Positions 156 through 51,486 of a stretch of 64,000 bases of DNA are shown in pieces. The notes beneath the pieces were generated by a model. It was not told where the DNA came from. It was given only the letters and a program-made list of their open reading frames with translations, and ran no database searches. Source of the DNA: Proales similis (Eukaryota; Rotifera; Eurotatoria; Ploima; Proalidae). The stretch's first letter is position 1, and each line of letters begins with the position of its first letter. The translations under genes were made by a program, and so were the position numbers. The stretch is from positions 1,116,001-1,180,000 of the forward strand of contig JAGVRJ010000007.1 in assembly GCA_019059635.1 (NCBI GenBank), read 5' to 3'.

Positions 156-2989
156 AGCCGATACAAGTGTGGTCGGCTCGGATAGAGCTGAGCAAGATCT
201 GCTCTCTAATTTAAAACATTTGTACAAAAGTAACAAACAGAGCTGAGTTGCGCTCTGCTCAGTGTCTATAGGGCCCATTCTGAGGCTCGAATCACCGTCC
301 TCACGCCGTCCTAAACCTACTGGCCTCTTTGAAAATAATTAATAAATATTTAAATTATGCGTTCAACGAGCAAAACAAGGGCGTAAAATAAAGAAGAAAA
401 ATGCACTTGTTCGAGCGATCGACTCAAAGTAGAAGCGGGCCAGCGAATGAATAAATGTTTGATCGTTTCAATTCGAGCAGATCAAGTGAACGCTCTCGAG
501 TTTCTGCCCTATTCTGCTGCACAACACGTCTCTTAAAATACGAAACAGGCGTGAAGTCGCTTTCGGTTGAGGTCAACTTGGACAACGCCGCTTCGGCCTC
601 CAAGATCTGCTTGACTGCGAATAGAGTCGACTTAATTCGAAGTTAATGAAGCCATTCGCCATCAACATAACCATCAGTCGCACTTGCAGTTGATCAACAA
701 GACAACCTCCTCTCAGCAGACACACACACACACACTACTTACCCAAGCGGACGCGCTCTTCATTTCGGGACGCGGCGAATGAATAGGTCCAATATTGATG
801 CATTTGGTGCGAAATGCGTTCTTTTGCCTCTGAGTCTCCTCAATCCTTGGCCGGCATTCGGAGCCATTTGATTGGGCCGAGTCGATATGCGCGAATTGAA
901 TAAGAGCGACATCTCCAAGTCGAAGTTTAGGCTCTCGACTAGAAGTTGTGGCTGCGCGCACTCGCGCCTTTTATATACGTACAAGAAAGCGGAGATAAGC
1001 TGCAACTTTAATCTAATCTAAATCCTATCCTGTAACAATATCTTGAAAATATGGTTTATCTTAATAAAATTAGGACTTTTTTTTTATTTCCAAATGATTG
1101 TAGGCGAGTTTGATACTCTCCAATTGGCAAGTTTATGATTAATATCAAGCTGCTTGAATATAAAATTCTGTAGTCGCAAGCTATTTTACATATCAGATCA
1201 AAACTGGCGAGCGGCTCTTCAACAAGCCCAATAACAAAAGTCAGATAACGGATACGCAAATCATGACCGATTTGATTACATTCATTCAGACTGTTCTCAG
1301 GGCGGCGGCCAATATTTCACCTCTTGTTCGAGGGACGCTCTACTAACAGAGAAATATGCCAGACAGACATCTGAAGGGTGCCAGAGGGGGAAAAGGTCGG
1401 ATTGCGTCTGTGGTTCAGGATTTCTCATCTCCATTGCGCAGGATCGATTTCTACCATTCAAAGTAACCACTAGACTGTGCCGACTCTGCCGCTCTTTTGA
1501 GGCTGTTTGTTCACATGAACGTGAGCGAGCGGCTTAGTTTAGTCGTTTTGCAATTACACTACGAAATGCGCAAAAAGCCAGGTTGCGTCAGCGGTCGGTA
1601 AGTTTCTTGAGTTCCTCTCGTACTTTGTTCGAAGTAACCACTCAACTAAGCTGGCCCGGATCGTTTATGAATGAAATTTTCATTTTGAATTTGCTCTCTG
1701 CTGCTCTAGTCGTTGCGCAATTACTCAAGGCTCATTATGCTATTTTTGGGCATAGCGGCAAGCATCCACGGCCCGTGGTGAATTAGATGCAAAGCAAAAG
1801 CATATGGTGTTTATTTAAATTCGACGAAAAGAGAGAAATTGAAAAGCAGAAATTCGTCAAATATGCAACGTCCAACTCTCAAGTGGATTCTGCGATCGTT
1901 TGTGTAAAAGCCAAAAACTCGAATCGAGCAACAGATATCTTCTGCCCTAACTGTGGCAATTAGTGGTGGTGAGCTATTGAACAGGTTGTCAGCAACACGA
2001 TTGGTTCGTTTTCGATCACATTGATGAGCATGTGCCTGATGCATGTGTGCATCAGCCTGATGAAGACGATGATGAATCTAGCGTTTAACATTAGATCTTG
2101 AGAAGCGATAAGTTTAAATCGATTCGATTGAGCCGTTTTCGAGCAAGGGGCCGATTCTTGAGCAAGATTATGCCTTCGCTCCAACAGGCAATTTAGGGCC
2201 AACTCCGATGAGATTTGGTTGCCGTTTGGTGGCCAAAGCGTTTCTAATTAGCCAGCTTTGTTTTAATTTTTAATTCAAGCCAGGCCAGGACTGCTCTGAT
2301 TGCTCAATCGATCCTATTCGGCTGGTTTTCGCTCGCTTTATCTAATCTGAAGAATATAATTCGACGATACCTTGACATCGGGAACAGTTTATCTATGAGT
2401 TGAGTAAACAGTCGCCCTACGACATTTTTCCGACCATTTTCCTGCCCCTTTCTTATCTCTCGAATGGCTTTTCGCCTCGCCAAGCGGCCAATTTAGCTGC
2501 TCATGCTTCGCTTCAACTTGTACTTTAACCGTTCTAAACAAATGAACAGACAAGCGGGCAAAGCCCGGGCCGCCGATGCTTCACTTTTGCCCCGTCCATT
2601 GGTCCTATTCAATTTTCTGCCCAACTGAAAATAAAACGAAGCGAATCGGGTCGACTCACACGCACACTGGTACAAACACCAGTGAAGATGCGCGCATGTG
2701 TTCTCGGCCTGTCAAGATAAATTTGTATAAAATAAAGCAAAAAGAACAGGTACATCAATAATTAATGATGCTCAGAGTGATGAATAGACACGGTTCTGGG
2801 ACCTGCTCGAGTCCGCCGGGGACCTGCAGACAAATGATAATGAATGATTGCGAGCTATTGCGGCCACGCTGGATTAGCAGCCAATCTAAACGAGCTTTTA
2901 ATGCTGCTCTCCTAAAGAGCCAGGTAATTAGACTGAGCGTGATTTTCGCCCTCTCGGTCTAACGGGCCATGCATAGACGCTCGGTCGGT

Positions 2990-11754: not shown

Positions 11755-13129
11755 ATGAGCCAGAACAAAAAGGTCAGTCTCACTGAAAAGTACTTGCCCA
11801 CTGATTTGTGGAAATGGATGAGCAAACGAACCAGCTTCGGAACGACCATCTACGATTGCATTAAGTCGGCTGTTGAGAACCCTGACAGCGGCGTCGGTCT
11901 CTATGCTCCTGGTATGAAGTCTGCGTTCGGTGATTTCTGAGCACCAGTCGTCTTACGGGAAATTTAAGACCCTGAGGCTTATGACACGTTTGCCGACCTC
12001 TTTCATCCTGTCATTGCCGACTACCACAAGGTGGATGTGGCCACTTTGAAATCGGTTCACGACCTTGGAGACGCCAGCCAGCTCGAAGACATGCCCAATG
12101 ACTACGCGGATAGAATCGTGTCGACGCGAGTGCGTGTTGGCCGCACCGTGAAGGGATTCCCGATGGCGAGCAAGCTCACCCGAGAGGTAGGCAATCGTGA
12201 GCGCCCGTCCACGTGTTCACATCTAACTCGACTGCCAGCAACGACTCGACCTCGAGTCCAAGGTCAAGGAGGCGCTCTCCAAGCTGGAGGGAGACCTCGC
12301 CGGCACCTACAAGTCGCTGACCGAGATGAGCTACGACGAGCGCAACAAGCTCATCGAGGAGCACATCCTCTACAACGACGCCGACGACCGCTTCTTGCGC
12401 AGCGCGGGCGGCTATGACGACTGGCCGGTAAGCCCTAGTCTGTGGAGGCGTCCGCCCATCTGCCCGGCGCTCACTTGTGTTGCTGTTGTAGCTCGGCAGA
12501 GGCATCTTCATGAACAAGAACAAGAACTTCATCGTGTGGGTCAACGAGGAGGACCACATCCGCATCATCAGCATGCAGAAGGGCGCCAGTCTCAAGGAGG
12601 TCTGGAGCCGTCTGGTCCGCGTAAGTGTGCAGGCGCTGGCTCGAGTTGGAGCTAAGAACTAAGCGAGCGGGTTGTGAAGGCCATCCACGCCATGGAGACC
12701 AAGTTGGAGTTCGTGCGCCACGACAAGTTCGGCTACTTGACCTTCTGCCCGACCAACATCGGCACCGGCCTTCGTGCCAGTGTTCACGTCAAAGTTCCAA
12801 AAATTGCCGATAGCGGAAAACTTAAGGAAATCTGCGAATCTATGGAACTACAGCCTCGAGGTGAGTATTCATGAGACATTTCTACTTTTTATATTTTCAC
12901 ACTTTTCATCATCATTCAACCATCAGGCGTTCACGGCGAACACACCGAGTCTGTCGGCGGAGTGTACGATATCTCCAACAAGATCCGCATCGGTCGAACT
13001 GAATGGAGTCTCATTAATACGATGTGGTATGGCACGTTATTCGCGGCGTGGATTTCACTTTTTCTCTTAAACGAGTTTATTTCAAGGACGGGAGTTCGAA
13101 AGCTGTTGGACGAGGAGCTTAAGAAATGA
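11755..13129 (+). CDS. Arginine kinase, tandem copy 1
   Basis: Phosphagen kinase transferring phosphate between ATP and arginine to buffer cellular ATP. Exons 11755-11911, 11969-12186, 12239-12427, 12492-12620, 12680-12860, 12927-13026 and 13087-13129 give 338 aa; introns are 52-66 nt. The guanidino-specificity region reads SGVGLYAPD as in arginine kinases. The reactive cysteine is Cys254 in CPTNIGT, and the STRVRVGR nucleotide-binding motif is present. It is slightly shorter than the usual 355 residues. All seven exons have the same phases as copy 2 downstream. A 675-nt core (12118-12792) is nearly identical to copy 2, introns included, while both ends differ. AATAAA at 13191-13196. Confidence 0.95.
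12118..12792 (+). repeat. Gene-conversion tract, arginine kinase copy 1
   Basis: Matches 14843-15523 of copy 2 across part of exon 2, introns 2-4, exons 3-4 and part of exon 5. I count about five substitutions and one 6-nt indel (in intron 2). Identity stops abruptly at both ends inside coding sequence. Confidence 0.85.
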
Positions 13130-14478: not shown

Positions 14479-15848
14479 ATGGCCGACAAACCAAAGAAGA
14501 TTAGCTTGACCCAGAAGTACCTTCCCGCTGACTTGTGGAAATGGTTTTCTCTCAAGACCTCGCACGGAACCACCATTTACGACTGCGTCAAGTCGGCTGT
14601 TGAGAACCCAGACAGCGGCGTCGGCCTCTATGCGCCAGGTAACCAAAGCATCGACTTGGATCACAATGTCTTTCCTAACTCAGACATGGCTAGATGCCGA
14701 GGCCTACGATGTCTTTGCCGATCTGTTTCACCCGGTCATTGCTGACTACCACAAGGTCGATGTTGCTACTCTCAAGTCTGTTCATGATTTGGGTGATCCC
14801 AGCCAACTCGAGGACCTTCCCGAGAACTATGCCAACCAGATTGTGTCGACGCGAGTGCGTGTTGGCCGCACCGTGAAGGGATTCCCGATGGCGAGCAAGC
14901 TCACCCGAGAGGTAGGCAAGCGCCTGCGTGAGCGCCCGTCCGCGTGTTCGCATCTAACTCGACTGCCAGCAACGACTCGACCTCGAGTCCAAGGTCAAGG
15001 AGGCGCTCTCCAAGCTGGAGGGAGACCTCGCCGGCACCTACAAGTCGCTGACCGAGATGAGCTACGACGAGCGCAACAAGCTCATCGAGGAGCACATCCT
15101 CTACAACGACGCCGACGACCGCTTCTTGCGCAGCGCGGGCGGCTATGACGACTGGCCGGTAAGCCCTAGTCTGTGGAGGCGTCCGCCCATCTGCCCGGCG
15201 CTCACTTGTGTTGCTGTTGTAGCTCGGCAGAGGCATCTTCATGAACAAGAACAAGAACTTCATCGTGTGGGTCAACGAGGAGGACCACATCCGCATCATC
15301 AGCATGCAGAAGGGCGCCAGTCTCAAGGAGGTCTGGAGCCGTCTGGTCCGCGTAAGTGTGCAGGCGCTGGCTCGAGTGGGAGCTAAGAACTAAGCGAGCG
15401 GGTTGTGAAGGCCATCCACGCCATGGAGACCAAGTTGGAGTTCGTGTGCCACGACAAGTTCGGCTACTTGACCTTCTGCCCGACCAACATCGGCACCGGC
15501 CTTCGTGCCAGTGTTCACGTCAAGGTCCCCAAGACCGCTGAGCGTGGAAAGCTGAACGATATCTGCGCCTCGATGGATCTCCAGCCCCGAGGTACTCCGA
15601 AATACCCACTAATCTTAATTTTCTTGTTGCATCAACGTTTCTTAGGCATCCACGGAGAGCACACCGAGTCCGTCGGCGGAGTGTACGATATCTCCAACAA
15701 GATCCGCATCGGCCGAACTGAGTGGGATCTAATCAACACTATGTGGTAATAATCCATCAAAATCAATTCTGCCCTATTCAATCTCGAGGCTTAACCATGA
15801 TTTCGCAGGATCGGAGTACGCAAGCTGCTTGATGAAGAGATGTCTTAA
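14479..15848 (+). CDS. Arginine kinase, tandem copy 2
   Basis: Second phosphagen kinase copy, same reaction as the upstream gene. Exons 14479-14638, 14694-14911, 14970-15158, 15223-15351, 15411-15591, 15646-15745 and 15809-15848 give 338 aa. [17 protein letters not shown] and the reactive Cys255 in CPTNIGT are all kept. Exon 1 and the C-terminal exons differ from copy 1 in many silent sites and several residues, whereas the core is almost identical. One replacement within the core turns Arg244 of copy 1 into Cys245. AATAAA at 15986 lies about 40 nt from the minus-strand poly(A) signal of the convergent RhoGEF gene. Confidence 0.95.
14843..15523 (+). repeat. Gene-conversion tract, arginine kinase copy 2
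   Basis: Partner of 12118-12792. A second short identical block of about 40 nt lies in exon 6 of both genes (around [13 protein letters not shown]). Confidence 0.85.
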
Positions 15849-43328: not shown

Positions 43329-44024
43329 ATGTATTCAATGAACCAGCAGTTTTACATGCAAAACCAGATGATGGCCAGTCCTGTAAGTGGCACTCCTTGT
43401 TTGTCAAATTCCGTTCTAGTCTTCATAACCGGCGTTCTGTGTTAGATGAGCAAGAAAGAGCTCAAGGCCAAGAAGCCTAAGGGACGAATGTCTGCCTACA
43501 CCTTCTTTGTGCAGACTTGCCGCGAAGAGCACCGCAAGAAGCACCCCAATGAGAATGTCAACTTCACTGAGTTCTCTAAAAAATGCGCTGAGCGCTGGAA
43601 GCAGATGACCGAGAAGGAGAAGAAGCGGTTCGCCGAGATGGCCGAAAAAGACAAGCAGCGATATGATCGAGAGATGGCTTCATACGTTCCACCACCTGGC
43701 GAAGGTGGCCGAAAGCGAAAGAAGAAGGACCCGAATGCACCCAAGCGACCTCTTTCCGCTTTCTTCTTGTTCTGTCACGATGAGAGACCGTCAGTGAAGG
43801 AGAAGTACCCGAGCCACTCTGTTGGCGAGGTGGCCAAGGAGTTGGGCGAGCGCTGGAACAAAGTGACTGCCGAGACCAAGGCCAAGTACGAGGCCAAGGC
43901 GCAGGAGGACAAGCATCGCTACGAGAAGGAAATGACCAAGTACAAGAACAAGCAGGCGGGCGCGGCTGCCTCGATTGACCATGTTGACGACGATGACGAT
44001 GACGACGAGGAGGACGACGAGTAA
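43329..44024 (+). CDS. HMGB: HMGB-type high-mobility-group protein with acidic tail (copy 1)
   Basis: Nuclear DNA-bending chromatin protein. Exons 43329-43382 and 43446-44024 join in phase 0 to 210 aa. Exon 1 gives an 18-residue Met/Gln-rich leader ([18 protein letters not shown]). HMG box A starts at [16 protein letters not shown], the linker is [14 protein letters not shown], box B contains [16 protein letters not shown], and the tail is a run of Asp/Glu ([12 protein letters not shown]). The second exon begins with its own ATG, so a 192-aa form is possible. AATAAA at 44357-44362. Large parts of box A are shared at DNA level with copy 2, and the 3' end with the ATRX-N/HMGB chimera. Confidence 0.95.
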
Positions 44025-44559
44025 GCATACAGTCCCCTTTGCTTCTATGTGCTTGTTCACATAACAAACGGCTCTCAACGCTGGTCGGACTAGTCGATCA
44101 GATCTACAACTTTCTGCGCCCCAACATTTCGTTCCTTTTTCTTCACTTTTTTTTTCTATTTGTACTAAAACAAAAACAAAAAAACACAATTCTGGCATCA
44201 ATCAAGCTCCACTTGTCGTCATTGTCGTTCCTCAAATATCCCCATCAAGCCATGTGCAGTCATCATTTGAGCCTGTCCAAGCCGCCTGATTGGAATATCA
44301 ACCAGTTGGTTACATTTTTCATCGCAATCTTTTCTCTTTTTTGATTGATTGATGTAAATAAAATCGGACGCACTGCTAGTTGACATAAACAATGGTAATG
44401 CTCTATTTCCCGTTCATTGGCGCCAACAGAAGCGCTTCTCTGCTCATATCCCTCTTTTCGGATGAGACAAAGCCAACAAAAGCGTTTGGTTTGATACCCA
44501 AATGAAGTAAAAAAAAAGGCAAAGTCGGCTAATCAGGTTCATTCGATTAGACTCTTAGA
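44025..44559. other. 3' UTR of HMGB copy 1 and spacer
   Basis: AATAAA at 44357-44362. Nothing else supported before HMGB copy 2. Confidence 0.6.
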
Positions 44560-45066
44560 ATGGATATAATTAAGAGTAAAAAACCCAAGGGTCGCATGTC
44601 AAACTACACGTTTTTTGTTCAAATGTGCCGCGAAGAGCACCGCAAGAAGCACCCCAATGAGAATGTCAACTTCACTGAGTTCTCTAAAAAATGCGCTGAG
44701 CGCTGGAAGCAGATGACCGAGAAAGAGAAGAAGCGGTTCGCCGAGATGGCCGAGAAGGACAAGCTGAGATACGAACGAGAGATGGCCAGCTACACACCAG
44801 AGAGCACAGACTCAAGTCGAAAGCGAAAGAAGAAGGACCCGAACGCGCCCAAGCGGCCACTGTCAGCTTTTTTCCTCTTTTGCCAGGACGAACGACCCGC
44901 AGTGAAAGCAGTCTATCCGAACTACTCGGTTGGCGAGGCTGCCAAGGAGCTCGGAGAGCGCTGGAACAAAGTGAGCGCAGAGACCAAGGCCAAGTACGAA
45001 GCCAAAGCGGCACAAGACAAGAGTCGTTACGACCGCGAGCTGGCCGTCTACAAGTCTCAGCAGTGA
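44560..45066 (+). CDS. HMGB-type protein lacking the acidic tail (copy 2)
   Basis: Single-exon ORF of 168 aa with two HMG boxes (MSNYTFFVQMCREEHR; then [18 protein letters not shown]) joined by the basic [14 protein letters not shown] linker. It ends at YKSQQ, so the acidic tail is absent. Loss of the tail in HMGB proteins generally raises DNA affinity; here that is inference. A run of about 100 nt in box A is identical to copy 1, and most of box B is nearly identical to the chimera downstream. AATAAA at 45393-45398, inside a 3' flank that is repeated after the chimera. Confidence 0.92.
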   Translation: MDIIKSKKPKGRMSNYTFFVQMCREEHRKKHPNENVNFTEFSKKCAERWKQMTEKEKKRFAEMAEKDKLRYEREMASYTPESTDSSRKRKKKDPNAPKRPLSAFFLFCQDERPAVKAVYPNYSVGEAAKELGERWNKVSAETKAKYEAKAAQDKSRYDRELAVYKSQQ

Positions 45067-45658
45067 ACTCGCACCATTTCAAACAGATTCAACATCAAGT
45101 TCAAACATATTCATTCTAGCGTCACATTCCGTTTGCCACACTTAACCTTCTACCGCCAGAGCTGATCCATTCAAAAAAAAAATAATTGTGTACATTTACG
45201 CAATGATGCATTTTCGCTGCATCCGCCAACATGCGACCAAATGTTTTCGCCTTTTTTTTGTTGACCAAGCAAAACCGAGCAGAACGTCCCGCCACTATCC
45301 GGTCAATGGTTTTGCTTACTCTCGTCAACATTTCTTTGTTTTGCTTTTATTATTCTCCTTTTAATTTAAAGAGTTCAAGCAGAGCCTTATAAAATAAAGC
45401 GTTAAAGAGCTCCAGGTCTTTGGCAGGCCTCAGAATTGGGTTTTAGAAATAGACTAGATAGACAGTCAGGCGATTGAACCGCCAAGACCAGGGCAAGACG
45501 CTTGCTTCCTCCAGTCTGACGATTGAATGAACGATAATATGGTCTCTTGACTCCAATTTAGTGGCCATAATGTCAGTTGAAGTAAATCTTGTGGCAAGTA
45601 AATTGTGCTCGCAATGTTCGCATCTCTGACGTCTGATTCAAGTCCCTTACCGGCCAAG
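45067..45658. other. Spacer holding duplicated HMGB 3' flank and ATRX 5' flank
   Basis: The part at about 45350-45412 resembles 46976-47036. The part at about 45595-45658 resembles 47190-47268 just upstream of ATRX (shared words AAGTAAATT and TCTGATTCAAGTC, and the start context CAAG-ATGGA-CC). These are the two flanks of a tandem duplication. Confidence 0.7.
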
Positions 45659-46819
45659 ATGGATCCGTCCTCTGTTCTCATCTGGGAATTCGATCAGTTT
45701 TTCCGACTCGGCAGCCGAATTGAAAAGCGCATTTCCATTCTAGCAAATGAGCTCGCAGAGATACGCGAGGAATTCAAAAGTTTCAGCCAGCTGGGTCAAG
45801 ATTTTAAGAAAAGGCTTGAGTTTGACATGGAAAAATCTGCATCGACAGGCAATGACAGTTCAGCAGACAATTTTGAATCTATAATTGAATCAGAAAGCAC
45901 TTGCCAGGAAGAAGAGATGATGCAAACCATCGACGCCCAGTTTGCTAGTGAAGAGGAGGGGCAGCCAGAGAATTCGATCGATCGCTGGTCATGCCAATCA
46001 GAAAATCAAGAAGCTGTGGGAACAGTCGGAGATAAGCTTAAGCAAATAATTAAGCAAAGAGCACCAAGCAGCGATGCAGACGGTCATCAATATTCTGAGG
46101 CAACGGTGATATCTCAAAAAACAGAAAGACGACTAGTTGACGTTCAAAATAATTATCAAACTATGCCACCTGAGCAGGTAAGCATCTAAGAGTAAAGCTC
46201 TTTGCGCTTGAAATCCGTTTTATTCTTAGAACTCGATTGTGCAAAGTTGAGCACTAACGAACTCAAGAGCAAAAAGCCCAAAGGGCGAAGCTCTGCCTAC
46301 ACATTTTTTGTTCAAACATACCGTGGAGAGCAACGCAAGGAGCGCCCCAATGAGAACGTCAATATCACTGAGTTTTCGAAAAAGTGTGCCGAGCACTGGA
46401 AGCAGTTGAATGAGGATGAGAAGAAGCAGTTTTCTGAAATGGCCCAGAAAGACAAGCAGCGATATGATCGAGAGATGGCCTCATACATTCGACCACCTTG
46501 GGAAGGCAGACGAAAGCGAAAGAAGAAGGACCCGAACGCGCCCAAGCGGCCACTGTCAGCTTTTTTCCTCTTTTGCCAGGACGAACGACCCGCAGTGAAG
46601 GCAGTTTATCCGAACTACTCGGTTGGCGAGGCAGCCAAGGAGCTGGGCGAGCGCTGGAACAAAGTGAGCGCAGAGACCAAGGCCAAGTACGAGGCCAAGG
46701 CGCAAGAGGACAAGCATCGCTACGAGAAGGAAATGACCAAGTACAAGAACAAGCAGTCGGGCGCGGCTGCCTCGATTGACCATGTTGACGACGATGACGA
46801 AGAGGAGGACGACGAGTAA
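45659..46819 (+). CDS. Chimeric gene: ATRX-like N-terminus fused to HMGB body
   Basis: Exons 45659-46177 and 46247-46819 join in phase 0 to 363 aa. Exon 1 (173 aa) is homologous to the N-terminus of the ATRX gene downstream: NELAEIREEFKSFSQLGQ matches SELAEINQEFSTFRQLGQ, and MMQTIDAQF matches VMQTIGTQF. It is acidic with a likely coiled coil. Exon 2 (190 aa) has two HMG boxes, the [14 protein letters not shown] linker and an acidic tail DDDDEEEDDE. Box B DNA follows HMGB copy 2, but the last 120 nt and about 20 nt past the stop follow copy 1. AATAAA at 47019-47024. The gene sits exactly between its two parents. Splicing of the two exons is predicted, not proven; the acceptor (TGCAAAG) is weak. 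Confidence 0.75.
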
Positions 46820-47268
46820 GCATACTGGCCCCTCCGATTATCTATTTTCAATATTTTCCTATTTTTACAAAATTGTATTTTAATTTGTACCGAAATTAAA
46901 ATTGGACCGATTAATATTTCTGCCATTTTGTGTTGGGATCAGACCGAGAAAAGCCCGATGCGTTCGACGGCTCAGTTATTCCCCTTTTAATATGAAAAGC
47001 TTAAGCAGAACCTTGTAAAATAAAGTGTCTAAGAGCCAGCTCAAAAAGTTTTAGGCAGTTTTCGATCCGGATTAATAGGCTGCTGTTTAGGCTGCCAGGC
47101 CAAGAACGGGCGCTTCAATCTACCGACAATGGAATCAAAGGCAAAATGGTCACTCACTCGAATGCGCTGTTCATAATGAGCATGTTTTGACAAGTAAATT
47201 ATGCCCTCGATGTTTGCATGTAACTATCTTGGACGGCCTCGTCTGATTCAAGTCTCAAACAGCCAAGG
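46820..47268. other. 3' UTR of the chimera and ATRX upstream region
   Basis: Shares its order of sequence with 45067-45658: HMGB-type poly(A) region (AATAAA at 47019) followed by ATRX-type 5' leader. This is the second copy of the duplicated junction. Confidence 0.7.
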
Positions 47269-50200
47269 ATGGACCCGCTCCCGGTTACATCCCTGATCGT
47301 TGAAAATTTGGTCGAGCCTCAAAAGCGTTCGACTGAAACAGCACATTCTGCAGACCGAAATGAAGGAAATTCGCACAAAGCTGTCGAAGAGCCTGTCGAT
47401 ATTAGCAGCCAGTCGGAAATTGCAGCCAAGCCCATTCATTCGATCGCTTCTGTTCTCATCGAGCAGTTTGATCAATTGTCTCGAATCGGCGATCAACTTG
47501 AGACACGCCTGTCGAATTTGGCGAGCGAGCTCGCAGAGATAAATCAGGAGTTCAGCACGTTCAGACAGCTGGGTCAAGAGTTGAAGAAAAAGCTCGAGTG
47601 TTGTGTGCATGTATCTGCATCGGCAGACAGAGCAGACAATTCAACAGGAAGCTCTGAATCTCTGATGGAAAGTCCTTCTCAGCAGTCGGAAGAGGTGGTC
47701 ATGCAAACCATTGGCACCCAGTTCGGCAGTGACGAGCACGACAACTCAAACGACTTGTTGTCAACTCAATCGGACAATGAAGAAGCTGAGCAAAGAGCCA
47801 AGCAGAAATTTAAAGAAATAATGAGCCTTGTTGTACTGAGCAGTGATCAAGAAGATGAAGAAATTTCAGAGCCAGCAGTGCCAGTCATCAAGACGGAAGA
47901 GCAAGAAATTCAGAATGATTCGGAAACGGCCAATCAAGAGCTGGAGCCAGCTCCACATTCGATTGAGGCTGCATTCAGACAGGATCCTAAACTTGCTCTT
48001 GAATGCCGAGTTGTCATCTCGAAAGAAGAGAGATCCAAATGTCAGCTGCTGCGCATGAGCAAGGAGACGACCAGGAGTCGACGATTCTCTGACGACTTGA
48101 CCAATATCGACCTTCGGCTTCCGCAAATGAACGTGTCAAAAAGCAGCAGCTCGCTTAGCTCTATGAACAAGAGAGCAGAAAAGCGAGCAGTTTCAAGCAT
48201 GTCGGAGGAAAGTGAAGACCAACTCGGCGTTGATTTAGAAAATGTGAACGATCTGCCCGACATGAATCCGGACTCAGAAGGCGAGTCAAAGCGGCGGCTA
48301 GAAGAGCTCATGGAACTTGACGGCGAAGACAGTGAACAGAGTGAAGAGGCAGACCAGAACTCGGAAGACAGTGCGCGTAATCTGTCGTCGTCAAAAACCA
48401 CCCAAGAGTCAAAGAGCAGTGAAGCCAGCTCGTCGAAATCGACCGTACGCATCGAAGGATCCGGAGTGAACGTTGAATCGCTCAACGAGACTCTAGTCCC
48501 TGAAGAGACAAGCGGTTCAGAAGAGCAGCCCACTCGGTCGAGGTCAACAAAAAGAGTGAATCCGTTTTCGAGCAGTTCGACCAGCTCGTCAGACGAGGAG
48601 TTCTCGTACAGAAATCAGCTCTACAGAAATAGCCTGCTCGGCAAAAGACAAAAGAGGAGTCCCAAGAAGCGACAGAGAAATCTGAAAAGAGTTGTGAAAA
48701 CCGAAGACTCCACTTCTGCGTTCAGTGAGACGACCAATGATCAGTCCGAGGAGGTCGAGGAGCTATTCAGCTCTGGCGATGGTTCCAGCGACGTGATCGA
48801 AATAGACGAAAGTGAACTGAAAGATGACTCGGCAAAGCCGAAGCGACCGAAATTAAGAAATTTAATGAACCAGGACAAGCTGCAGAAATCAACTGTGAAC
48901 GCCGAAAAAGCAGAGCGAGAACGCAAGAAAAGAATTGAAGCGAAAGAAAAGCTGGAGAAAAGCGTCCAGCCTGTGGACGGCTTGTATCTGGACATTGACT
49001 CGAAAACCAAAGAGCGCCTGCTTCAAGTTGAGCCTGGCATCGCCAAAAACCTCAAGCCGCATCAAGTCGAGGGAGTCAAATTCATGTTCGACTCGTGCTA
49101 CGAGTCGGTCGAGGCTGTTCAGCGTGGCGAGCCAGGCGGTGGATGCATTCTCGCTCATTGCATGGGCTTGGGCAAAACGCTTCAAGTGGTCGCGCTTGTG
49201 CACACAGTTCTGAACAACAGCGAGGCAACAGACACTCGGCATGTGATCATCATCATGCCCAAGAACGTGTTGCAGAACTGGCGCACTGAATTTCAAAAGT
49301 GGACCAGACCCTGCAGGAAGCAAATAAAAATATTCTCCGCGCTGGACAACTTCAGCAAAAGCGATCGCAACCAGAGCCAGAACAGCGAGCTGTTAAAATG
49401 GGACCGTCAAGGTGGCGTCTACTTGATCAATTATACCCGATTCGCCAACATAATGATAAAGCAGAGTCACGAGCGGCTTAAGGAAATACTGAAATCGACG
49501 CCCGATTTGCTAATATGCGACGAGGGCCACCTGCTCAAGTCGGATCAGACAAACAACTCAAAGTCGATCAATATGGTGGAGACTGCGCGACGAATTGTGC
49601 TTACAGGCACGCCGCTGCAGAACAATTTGAAAGAGTATCACTGCATGGTGTCAATAGTGAAGCCCAACCTGCTCGGCAACGCCAAAGAGTTTAACAATCG
49701 CTTCGTGAACCCGATCAAATACGGCCTTCACAAGGACTCGACAGAGTCGGACGTTCGTCTGATGAAGAAAAGGGCTCATGTGCTTCATGACACCCTGAGC
49801 GGCTGTGTTCAACGTCGAGACTACAACCTGATCAGAGACTCGCTGCCGGACAAATACGAGTACGTGATATCGATCAGGCTGTCCGAGCACCAGGTGCAGC
49901 TCTATCGTCTCTACTTGCAGCGAGTGAGAGGCATAAACGAGGAGAACTCGGCCGACGCCAGCAACTTTGCGCTCAAGAACAAACTCTTCCAGGACTTTGC
50001 CAATTTGTATTCGGTGTGGACGCATCCGTGGATTGTGCGCTTGCGATACGAAAAGCTCAAGCTGAAGCGGAAACTGAGCGAAGCGCGCAAGAAGAATCAG
50101 ATTTTAGACGGCGACGAAGAGCAGTTGAACGATCCATTGCTGAACAACGATCCGCTGCTCAGCAACGGCAACGACAATCAGCTCGACTCGACTCAAACAG

Positions 50201-51486
50201 AGCTGGCCGACATTCCTTGGTGGAATCAGTACATAAATGACGAGCACGAGCACGTGTTTGAGATCGCGCCCAAGTTCATGGTGCTCGAGCATATTCTGAA
50301 AATTTGCAAGGCGAAAAAAGACAAGCTTCTTGTGTTTAGCTATTCGCTGATGACACTCGACGCCATTCAGCGATTCCTGGCGCAGCTCAGCGCCCGAAGC
50401 GGCGAACAATGGGAAAAGGAGAAGGACTTTTACCGGCTGGACGGAAGCACGGACGTTCATCATCGAGAGAAAATCATAAAGCAATTCAACAGAGCAGAAA
50501 ATGAACGCGGCCGTCTGTTTCTCATTTCGACCAAGGCGGGCGGCGTGGGCATCAACTTGGTGGGCGCCAATCGCTGTGTCATATTCGACGCCTCCTGGAA
50601 CCCATCCGACGACAATCAGTCTATATTTCGCGTATTTCGCTTTGGCCAAACCAAAAACGTTTACATCTACCGCTTTCTGGCCCAAGGCACCATGGAGGAA
50701 AAGATCTACCAACGCCAAGTGACCAAGCTGTCGCTCTCTCAACGCGTAATCGACGAGCACCAGCTGGACAGGCATTTCACGAGTCAGCAACTGCGCGAGC
50801 TCTACAACTTTCAGCCGGACGAGAATCACGACTCAACGGGCGCGATGCGCTTCAAGATGCCCGACGACGACTTGCTCAAGCAAGTCCTCACCGAATGCAA
50901 GAGCCTGGTGGCCGACTACCACGAGCATGACTCGTTACTGGAGAATCGACTCGACGAGGGCCTCAGCGAGGAGGACCGCATCAGCGCCTGGGCCGAGTAT
51001 GAAGCTGAGAAAAGGAACGAGGCTCAAGTAGCCAGCTACAACGCTCAAGTAGCCGGCTACAACGCTCAATTGAGCCAGGACGCTCTGATGCAGCAATTGC
51101 ACGCACGTCTGCCCAACGCGCCTTGGAACCAGCCTATTCTGCCCGCGCTCGACCCGCAGTTTCAGAGATTTATGAACGCCAACATGAACTTGAACATGAA
51201 TATAGAAATGTTAAAATCGCTGGTCGCCTCCAGGCAAGCTAATGCTCTTCACGAGCATCACAGAAACCAGAACACTAATCGACCAATAGGAGCGAATAAT
51301 GTGCCTCGAGACATCGCAGAGCTGCCAAGAGACCAGCTACCGCCGCCATCCGATCTACGCATGGTATATCCGACCAGAATCAGACTGCCGGTGCCTGACG
51401 CCAACATGCCTGTGTCAATAGTGCACCTTCGCAACTCATTTCTCAATGAAAATCGCACTGACGCAAACGATGCAACTACCAATTGA
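47269..51486 (+). CDS. ATRX: ATRX/XNP-type SNF2 chromatin remodeller, intronless
   Basis: ATP-dependent chromatin remodelling helicase-like enzyme. A single exon encodes 1,405 aa. The acidic, Ser-rich N-terminal 560 residues have a coiled-coil-like segment near 75-105. SNF2 ATPase lobe 1 carries Walker A MGLGKT (Lys636), the ATRX-typical DEGH box (Asp751) and LTGTPLQNNLKEYH. Lobe 2 spans about 1005-1140 with LLVFSYSLMTLDAIQ, STKAGGVGINLVGAN and IFRVFRFGQTKNVYIYRFL. No ADD zinc-finger domain is present, as in Drosophila XNP. The Gln/Asn/Met-rich C-terminus has the near-repeat QVASYNAQVAGYNAQ. AATAAA at 51569-51574, convergent with CAMSAP. The N-terminus is duplicated in the upstream chimera. 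Confidence 0.95.
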   Translation: MDPLPVTSLIVENLVEPQKRSTETAHSADRNEGNSHKAVEEPVDISSQSEIAAKPIHSIASVLIEQFDQLSRIGDQLETRLSNLASELAEINQEFSTFRQLGQELKKKLECCVHVSASADRADNSTGSSESLMESPSQQSEEVVMQTIGTQFGSDEHDNSNDLLSTQSDNEEAEQRAKQKFKEIMSLVVLSSDQEDEEISEPAVPVIKTEEQEIQNDSETANQELEPAPHSIEAAFRQDPKLALECRVVISKEERSKCQLLRMSKETTRSRRFSDDLTNIDLRLPQMNVSKSSSSLSSMNKRAEKRAVSSMSEESEDQLGVDLENVNDLPDMNPDSEGESKRRLEELMELDGEDSEQSEEADQNSEDSARNLSSSKTTQESKSSEASSSKSTVRIEGSGVNVESLNETLVPEETSGSEEQPTRSRSTKRVNPFSSSSTSSSDEEFSYRNQLYRNSLLGKRQKRSPKKRQRNLKRVVKTEDSTSAFSETTNDQSEEVEELFSSGDGSSDVIEIDESELKDDSAKPKRPKLRNLMNQDKLQKSTVNAEKAERERKKRIEAKEKLEKSVQPVDGLYLDIDSKTKERLLQVEPGIAKNLKPHQVEGVKFMFDSCYESVEAVQRGEPGGGCILAHCMGLGKTLQVVALVHTVLNNSEATDTRHVIIIMPKNVLQNWRTEFQKWTRPCRKQIKIFSALDNFSKSDRNQSQNSELLKWDRQGGVYLINYTRFANIMIKQSHERLKEILKSTPDLLICDEGHLLKSDQTNNSKSINMVETARRIVLTGTPLQNNLKEYHCMVSIVKPNLLGNAKEFNNRFVNPIKYGLHKDSTESDVRLMKKRAHVLHDTLSGCVQRRDYNLIRDSLPDKYEYVISIRLSEHQVQLYRLYLQRVRGINEENSADASNFALKNKLFQDFANLYSVWTHPWIVRLRYEKLKLKRKLSEARKKNQILDGDEEQLNDPLLNNDPLLSNGNDNQLDSTQTELADIPWWNQYINDEHEHVFEIAPKFMVLEHILKICKAKKDKLLVFSYSLMTLDAIQRFLAQLSARSGEQWEKEKDFYRLDGSTDVHHREKIIKQFNRAENERGRLFLISTKAGGVGINLVGANRCVIFDASWNPSDDNQSIFRVFRFGQTKNVYIYRFLAQGTMEEKIYQRQVTKLSLSQRVIDEHQLDRHFTSQQLRELYNFQPDENHDSTGAMRFKMPDDDLLKQVLTECKSLVADYHEHDSLLENRLDEGLSEEDRISAWAEYEAEKRNEAQVASYNAQVAGYNAQLSQDALMQQLHARLPNAPWNQPILPALDPQFQRFMNANMNLNMNIEMLKSLVASRQANALHEHHRNQNTNRPIGANNVPRDIAELPRDQLPPPSDLRMVYPTRIRLPVPDANMPVSIVHLRNSFLNENRTDANDATTN

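What the first reader, a model, noticed from the sequence alone, without database searches (positions are those of the whole stretch)
45067..47500. Chimeric ATRX-N/HMGB gene born at a tandem-duplication breakpoint
The gene at 45659-46819 joins an exon homologous to the ATRX N-terminus to an exon with two HMG boxes and an acidic tail. It lies between HMGB copy 2 and ATRX. Its 5' leader resembles the ATRX leader and its 3' flank resembles the HMGB copy 2 flank, as expected if one unit spanning the HMGB-ATRX junction was duplicated in tandem. An HMG-box protein carrying the ATRX N-terminal region could be drawn to the same partners as ATRX. I know of no described ATRX-N/HMGB fusion.
Basis: partly seen in the sequence, partly recalled or inferred. 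Interest (0 to 1): 0.88.

Follow-up and report, generated by a model that had tools for sequence, protein, structure and literature searches.

The report
Rotifer ATRX-N/HMGB fusion gene
In the tiny genome of a marine rotifer, a partial tandem duplication appears to have joined the front end of the chromatin remodeller ATRX to a DNA-bending HMGB protein, making an unusual fused gene that seems to have been kept open by selection, though its transcript has not been seen.

Summary
Between HMGB copy 2 and ATRX lies a two-exon gene. Exon 1 (45659-46177) is a diverged copy of ATRX's N-terminus (46% identity, E 1.8e-27); its leader copies the ATRX leader. Exon 2 (46247-46819) encodes two HMG boxes and an acidic tail. 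The joined frame is open; the donor is strong, the acceptor plausible but with a rival 17 nt upstream. Exon 2 has no ATG before residue 65, yet its box A shows constraint (pairwise dN/dS 0.17), so it is most likely translated only as part of the fusion. Exon 1 and box A diverged from their sources to about the same degree (dS about 0.8), as expected of one event. Corrections: exon 2 is a mosaic (box A of copy-1 type, box B front from copy 2, end and tail from copy 1), and the ATRX part is an N-terminal coiled coil, not the vertebrate ADD domain. No transcript data were available. No fusion was seen among the 120 best HMGB-type hits, a weak negative. The origin mechanism is a known kind; I found no earlier report of this domain combination. 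Function is inferred.

The parts
43329..43382 (+). HMGB copy 1, exon 1 ([18 protein letters not shown])
   Evidence: Read from sequence; similar Q-rich start in HMGBs of unnamed, rotifer-like sources P0122, P0124, P0127, P0128
43383..43445 (+). HMGB copy 1 intron (63 nt), likely source of the fusion's intron
   Evidence: Best partner of the fusion intron: 8 of 5000 shuffles as high for 46186-46246, 19 of 5000 for the whole intron; weaker (74 of 3000) against a wider target
43446..44024 (+). HMGB copy 1, exon 2 (two HMG boxes, acidic tail)
   Evidence: Pfam, frame
44560..45066 (+). HMGB copy 2 (two HMG boxes, no acidic tail)
   Evidence: Pfam; in the box A tree it lies in a group of 12 rows, 10 of them tail-less
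45350..45658 (+). Duplicated intergenic block: an AATAAA that could serve the upstream HMGB gene plus ATRX-type 5' leader
   Evidence: Aligns with 46976-47267, 0 of 2000 shuffles as high
45659..46177 (+). Fusion exon 1: ATRX N-terminal coiled coil and acidic stretch, 173 codons
46178..46246 (+). Fusion intron, phase 0, donor CAG|GTAAGC, acceptor GTGCAAAG|TTG, two in-frame stops
   Evidence: Donor at 0.99 of 154 training donors. Acceptor at or above 41 of 41 training acceptors in the cleaner set, but ranked at 0.0 of the 154 in the earlier, contaminated set
46247..46819 (+). Fusion exon 2: HMG box A, HMG box B, acidic tail; no ATG in frame before residue 65
46537..46672 (+). Stretch of exon 2 recently copied from HMGB copy 2 (approximate bounds)
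   Evidence: Residues 86-150: dS 0.16 to copy 2, 0.80 to copy 1; diagnostic bases
46693..46833 (+). End of box B, acidic tail and 14 nt past the stop recently copied from HMGB copy 1 (approximate bounds)
   Evidence: dS 0.10 to copy 1, 0.82 to copy 2
46976..47268 (+). AATAAA block and leader of ATRX, the other copy of the duplicated intergenic block
47269..51486 (+). ATRX gene, 1405 aa, single open frame
   Evidence: SNF2 and Helicase_C; ATRX relatives incl. Brachionus calyciflorus at 52% over 98% of the helicase part
47446..47943 (+). Part of ATRX homologous to fusion exon 1 (preceded by about 56 codons absent from the fusion)

Best explanation
A tandem duplication in the lineage of Proales similis, running from about the first intron of an HMGB gene to about codon 225 of ATRX, placed a second ATRX leader and N-terminal coding region upstream of an HMGB second exon. 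An HMGB-derived intron lets the ATRX coding stretch splice in frame to two HMG boxes and an acidic tail, giving one protein of about 363 aa behind an ATRX-type leader. Shown: anatomy, homologies, open frame, lack of HMGB's own start codons together with constraint on box A, later gene conversion by the neighbouring HMGB copies. Inferred: that the splice is used, and how the protein acts. Most likely it is a helicase-less ATRX-N adaptor: the coiled coil pairs with itself, ATRX or an ATRX partner, while box B and the tail bind and bend DNA, so that it works as a DNA-architectural partner or competitor of ATRX at the same chromatin.
For: Exon 1-ATRX homology; duplicated leader; intron resembling copy 1's intron; strong donor and, in the cleaner set, a top-ranking acceptor (at or above 41 of 41; AAG ends 19 of those 41 introns); the frames of exon 1 and exon 2 score best of six by hexamers while the intron is negative in all six. 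Exon 2's first Met is residue 65, against 1, 15, 54 in copy 1, yet box A pairwise dN/dS is 0.172, and a worst-case value for the fusion branch is 0.34 (95% 0.14-0.73; 3 of 2000 bootstraps at or above 1). Similar age of both halves: dS 0.84 for exon 1 versus ATRX, 0.78 for box A versus copy 1. Neutral survival of the frames at that divergence is rare: 13 of 5000 for exon 1 and 218 of 5000 for box A, stops only. The coil is recognisable in P0003 (unnamed, Brachionus-like ATRX; 0 of 1000 shuffles as high) and less strongly in B. calyciflorus ATRX (1 of 1000), and exon 1 keeps its heptad core (12 of 14 hydrophobic, 4 of 5000 shuffles as good).
Against: No RNA evidence. Exon 1 overall dN/dS is 0.51 (95% 0.30-0.76), which a neutral copy facing a fully constrained ATRX could also give. 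A competing acceptor at 46229 (at or above 36 of 41) would end the protein at once, and in the first, contaminated splice model it outscored 46246 (0.32 against 0.0 of training). Nine conserved positions in or at the end of box A are changed, against 0 in copy 1 and 1 in copy 2 (99 conserved columns, 19 reference rows that include copies 1 and 2). No fused relative was seen. Function is untested.
Confidence: 0.72

Rival explanations
1. The locus makes only a short ATRX-N protein (176-179 aa): intron retention or the 46229 acceptor stops translation just after exon 1, and the HMGB part is untranslated 3' sequence. It would act like a truncated ATRX isoform.
For: A natural human isoform without the SWI/SNF domain, ATRXt, exists (PMC13074095, abstract).
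Against: Box A would then be free to decay, but its dN/dS is low and the whole HMGB frame is open. The 46246 acceptor ranks higher in the cleaner model and is the position that aligns with copy 1's acceptor; a further in-frame acceptor at 46267 (30 of 41) would also give a fusion.
Confidence: 0.13
2. Exon 1 and the HMGB exon are separate genes; HMGB copy 3 is expressed alone (own promoter, or trans-splicing at 46247).
For: Copy 1 and copy 2 next door are stand-alone HMGB genes.
Against: No in-frame ATG between the splice acceptor and residue 65, inside box A. Exon 1 ends in a very strong splice donor (0.99 of training).
Confidence: 0.05
3. A decaying chimeric pseudogene, its frames open by chance and its box B refreshed by gene conversion.
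For: Nine changed conserved residues in the box A part; recent conversion explains the fresh box B and tail; exon 1 dN/dS near 0.5.
Against: Survival of both frames is rare under neutrality at the measured divergence; box A dN/dS below 1; with strict gap costs the one indel between exon 2 and copy 1 is a multiple of 3, and 5 of 6 in exon 1, against 6 of 16 in the flank, though loose gap costs show no such contrast.
Confidence: 0.1

Closest known systems
Chimeric genes made by tandem duplications that cross gene boundaries (Drosophila yakuba, PMC5460883; passages seen)
   Same: The 5' end of one gene is joined to the 3' end of its neighbour at the duplication junction.
   Different: Those are polymorphic variants within a species; this one is old (dS about 0.8), has a maintained frame, and was reshaped by gene conversion from the neighbouring copies.
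ATRXt, the ATRX isoform without the SWI/SNF domain (PMC13074095; abstract and outline seen)
   Same: Carries ATRX N-terminal sequence without the motor.
   Different: Made by retention of intron 10 in the one ATRX gene; no HMG boxes. That it holds the vertebrate ADD domain is recalled.
Drosophila dADD1 (PMC4249797; abstract and outline seen)
   Same: A separate gene supplying an ATRX N-terminal function; its products bind dATRX and HP1a.
   Different: Supplies the ADD domain; here it is a coiled coil joined to HMG boxes.
BAF57/SMARCE1 (recalled; only a search listing seen)
   Same: HMG domain plus coiled coil serving a remodeller.
   Different: One HMG box, BAF complex, unrelated coiled coil (recalled).
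HMGB1/DSP1-type two-box HMGB
   Same: Two HMG boxes and acidic tail.
   Different: Q-rich N-terminal exon replaced by 173 ATRX-derived residues; box A altered, including C25Y and F40I of exon 2 (C23 and F38 in HMGB1 numbering, recalled).

Membership tests
Chimeric gene from partial tandem duplication | Both parents present in tandem beside the chimera | tested here: met
   HMGB copies at 43329-45066, ATRX at 47269-51486
Chimeric gene from partial tandem duplication | Shared flank shows that the unit spans the HMGB-ATRX junction | tested here: met
   45350-45658 versus 46976-47267, 0 of 2000 shuffles
Chimeric gene from partial tandem duplication | Breakpoint located | tested here: inconclusive
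   ATRX similarity reaches about 46178 weakly (28 of 3000, 52 of 3000 over a longer stretch); copy 1 intron similarity starts at 46183-46187 (8 of 5000, 19 of 5000, 74 of 3000 by range); junction within roughly 46165-46187
Chimeric gene from partial tandem duplication | Chimeric transcript | not testable with these tools
   No RNA data at hand
HMGB (two-box) | Two HMG boxes | tested here: met
HMGB (two-box) | Acidic C-terminal tail | tested here: met
   DDDDEEEDDE end
HMGB (two-box) | Box A redox cysteine pair (typical, not defining) | tested here: not met
   First Cys is Tyr (C25Y), second kept (C47)
HMGB (two-box) | Binds and bends DNA | not testable with these tools
   Needs protein
ATRX | SNF2 ATPase/helicase | tested here: not met
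   Neither fusion exon has one; the gene derives from ATRX but is no remodeller
ATRX | N-terminal coiled coil as in Proales ATRX | tested here: met
   no structure model could be made
ATRX | ADD domain | tested here: not met
   None in Proales ATRX or exon 1 by Pfam. A genome search found none, but its controls were silent too, so absence from the genome is not shown

The most novel reading that the evidence does not exclude
A new kind of ATRX accessory protein: through the shared coiled coil the fusion pairs with ATRX itself and supplies the complex with HMG-box DNA bending, or blocks it as a natural dominant negative, while gene conversion from the HMGB neighbours keeps its box B fresh.
Probability: 0.3. 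Interest if true: 0.68.

Novelty: new variant of a known kind. Interest (0 to 1): 0.52.

Why it matters
It is a case in which the stages of birth of a fused chromatin gene can be read in one 8-kb stretch: both parents, the duplicated leader, the junction, the probable borrowed intron, the lost start codons and later gene conversion. If expressed, it links the ATRX N-terminus to an architectural DNA binder and offers a natural test of what that N-terminus does without the motor. Proales similis can be cultured (recalled), so cDNA would settle the matter.

Tried and rejected

I rejected it for acceptors because it had picked exonic AAG ends and gave copy 1's acceptor the bottom rank too. The second set (41 introns, chosen by donor pattern and with a single frame-compatible acceptor each, at most 80 nt, copy 1 and the fusion left out) put 46246 at or above 41 of 41, 46229 at 36, 46267 at 30, but copy 1's own acceptor at only 5. 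In that set 15 of 41 introns hold an unused AG at least 40 nt from the donor and at least 8 nt before the acceptor, 7 of 41 are 69 nt or longer and 2 of 41 are 52 nt or shorter. Splice support is therefore good for the donor and moderate for the acceptor.

Indel test: with loose gap costs exon 1 showed 21 gaps, 4 multiples of 3, no better than the flank (7 of 32); with strict costs 5 of 6 against 6 of 16. Weak evidence either way.

Origin of the fusion's exon 1 end from HMGB exon 1: no similarity (2550 of 3000 shuffles as high). Intron from copy 2's upstream region: no (551 of 3000). DAXX search: nothing, but its controls were silent, so uninformative. Two chromo-shadow (HP1-type) matches exist.

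Relatives: exon 1 alone, 27 candidates, none at E 10 or better (only proteins of about 95-303 aa were eligible, so a 363-aa fusion was not). Whole fusion, 860 hits among 3400 candidates, 120 listed and examined. phmmer of exon 1 against the 240 proteins held (the 120 listed of 2176 ATRX-type hits and the 120) gave at best E 0.094, for an HMGB; but the known ATRX coils of P0002 and P0003 were not among its 20 rows shown either, so that scan would miss a diverged fusion. A pairwise test with four coils on the 49 of 120 HMGBs that have 40 or more residues before box A had working controls (Proales coils against P0003 z 6.1 and 7.6, against P0002 z 3.3 and 4.1). Its best row, P0137 (z 5.4), proved on reading to be the ordinary Q-rich HMGB start that shares MDPS and scattered residues with exon 1 (1 of 5000 shuffles as high, one of 196 comparisons); I read P0137, P0145, P0230 and P0151 and count no fusion among the 49. 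P0138 covers 74% of the query but has a Q/N-rich N-terminus.

Papers: judging from titles and abstract starts only, (14 listed; 8 of 21 listed; 1) showed no ATRX-HMGB fusion; one search returned none.
Full report
Source. The window lies at C7:1116001-1180000 of a 32.7-Mb genome in 15 contigs. C1 (3,837,811) and C6 (2,428,301) have exactly the largest-scaffold length and N50 that PMC11954553 gives for Proales similis. ATRX relatives include Brachionus calyciflorus (P0002, 52% over 98% of the helicase part) and several unnamed proteins at 50-54%.

Anatomy. From left to right: HMGB copy 1 (exon 1 at 43329-43382, 63-nt intron, exon 2 to 44024), HMGB copy 2 (44560-45066, no acidic tail), the fusion (exon 1 45659-46177, intron 46178-46246, exon 2 46247-46819) and ATRX (47269-51486, one open frame, SNF2 and helicase C). 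All are on the + strand.

Exon 1 is ATRX. In a six-frame search of the genome it matches itself and ATRX (46% over residues 4-169, E 1.8e-27); the only other match has E 0.098. The stretch contains a coiled coil near the N-terminus that is recognisable in P0003 (unnamed, close to Brachionus; 0 of 1000 shuffles reach the score for exon 1 or for Proales ATRX) and in B. calyciflorus ATRX P0002 (1 and 4 of 1000). In exon 1 the heptad core is 12 of 14 hydrophobic (4 of 5000 shuffles as good), in ATRX 12 of 14 (0 of 5000); in P0002 the pattern is not significant (378 of 5000) and in P0003 moderate (37 of 5000). The fusion lacks about 56 codons after MDP that Proales ATRX has; P0002 and P0003 also start their coil within about 20 residues, so the insertion probably arose in ATRX after the duplication (inference).

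The duplicated unit. The block 45350-45658 is a copy of 46976-47267 (0 of 2000 shuffles). It starts with an AATAAA that can serve the HMGB gene upstream and runs into the ATRX leader. The fusion intron is most like copy 1's intron (8 to 19 of 5000 shuffles; 74 of 3000 in a wider target), not copy 2's upstream region (551 of 3000). The last coding bases of exon 1 are weakly like ATRX up to about 46178 (28 of 3000). So the joint lies close to the present splice donor, but the breakpoint is not fixed to the base.

Mosaic exon 2. Up to about residue 85 it is of copy-1 type (dS 0.78 to copy 1, 1.33 to copy 2); residues 86-150 are close to copy 2 (dS 0.16 against 0.80); the end and tail are close to copy 1 (dS 0.10 against 0.82). 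In a box A tree of 42 rows it is sister to copy 1 (98/84) on a long, flagged branch, while copy 2 sits in a group of 12 rows of which 10 are tail-less; in box B front it is identical to copy 2 (83 and 62 columns, many forks unresolved; most rows are unnamed proteins taken as rotifer by similarity). The simplest history is a duplication from copy 1's intron through copy 2 to ATRX, merging of the duplicated copies 1 and 2 into one, then two recent conversions. The order of the first steps is inference.

Is it a gene? For: exon 1 and exon 2 score best in their own frame of six, the intron is negative in all six (exon 1's score, 0.034, is modest, at the 92nd percentile of 8000 random frames; ATRX's own N-terminus scores 0.162). 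Exon 2's first methionine is residue 65, where copy 1 has 1, 15 and 54 before it, yet box A shows dN/dS 0.172 (95% 0.07-0.36). If all 25 non-synonymous and half the 25 synonymous changes are laid on the fusion's branch, the value is 0.34 with 3 of 2000 bootstraps at or above 1. Neutral copies would keep exon 1 free of stops in 13 of 5000 runs at 0.415 changes per site and 122 of 5000 at 0.2; box A in 218 and 702 of 5000 (no indels simulated). The donor is among the best of its training set. Against: exon 1 dN/dS of 0.51 does not by itself prove constraint on the fusion branch; the coil part is 0.36 (95% 0.12-0.74); nine conserved residues in the box A part are changed; the acceptor ranks top in one model and bottom in another, with a rival 17 nt upstream that would end the protein. 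Constraint on box A could also partly predate the fusion.

How it may work. Shown: a coil of ATRX type, an intact box B and an acidic tail in one open, spliceable frame behind an ATRX-type leader. Inferred: expression like ATRX's; pairing by the coil; DNA binding mainly by box B, since box A has lost C25 and F40, which align with a cysteine and a phenylalanine of HMGB1 (alignment; their redox and DNA-intercalating roles are recalled). Precedents for ATRX N-terminal parts acting apart from the motor are ATRXt (abstract) and dADD1 (abstract).

Novelty. Gene birth by tandem duplication across gene boundaries is well described (PMC5460883, passages). I found no ATRX-N/HMGB fusion among the listed proteins or, by title and abstract start, in the paper searches. 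The negative is weak: lists were capped at 120, exon 1 diverges fast, and the protein collection seems not to hold Proales itself, so how widespread the fusion is remains open.

Noticed in passing
window 11788-13029 and 14515-15748: Another tandem duplication in the same window: 86% identical over an alignment of 1256 columns, with one identical pair of predicted introns at 12427 and 15158.
   Followed up: partly
window 1390-1486 and 1571-1657, - strand: Two adjacent vault RNA matches (Rfam RF00006, 37.1 and 42.1 bits, gathering score 34).
   Followed up: no
window 47281-47448: About 56 codons near the start of Proales ATRX that neither the fusion nor P0002 and P0003 have; probably an insertion in ATRX.
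   Followed up: partly
window 43446-43700 and 44560-44810: HMGB copies 1 and 2 are almost identical through the middle of box A (about 130 bases) though dS is near 1 overall: gene conversion between them too.
   Followed up: partly
protein P0125: A metagenome HMGB with a copy-1 type N-terminus and box A but a copy-2 type box B and end; either the same sort of conversion in another rotifer or an assembly chimera.
   Followed up: no
L031, - strand, near 2332 and 5450: The same predicted intron sequence occurs twice 3.1 kb apart, suggesting another local tandem duplication in this compact genome.
   Followed up: no
20 loci plus window: The 41 unambiguous predicted introns are short (median 60 nt, with a cut-off at 80) and 19 of 41 end in AAG, which seems unusual for an animal (recalled comparison).
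   Followed up: partly
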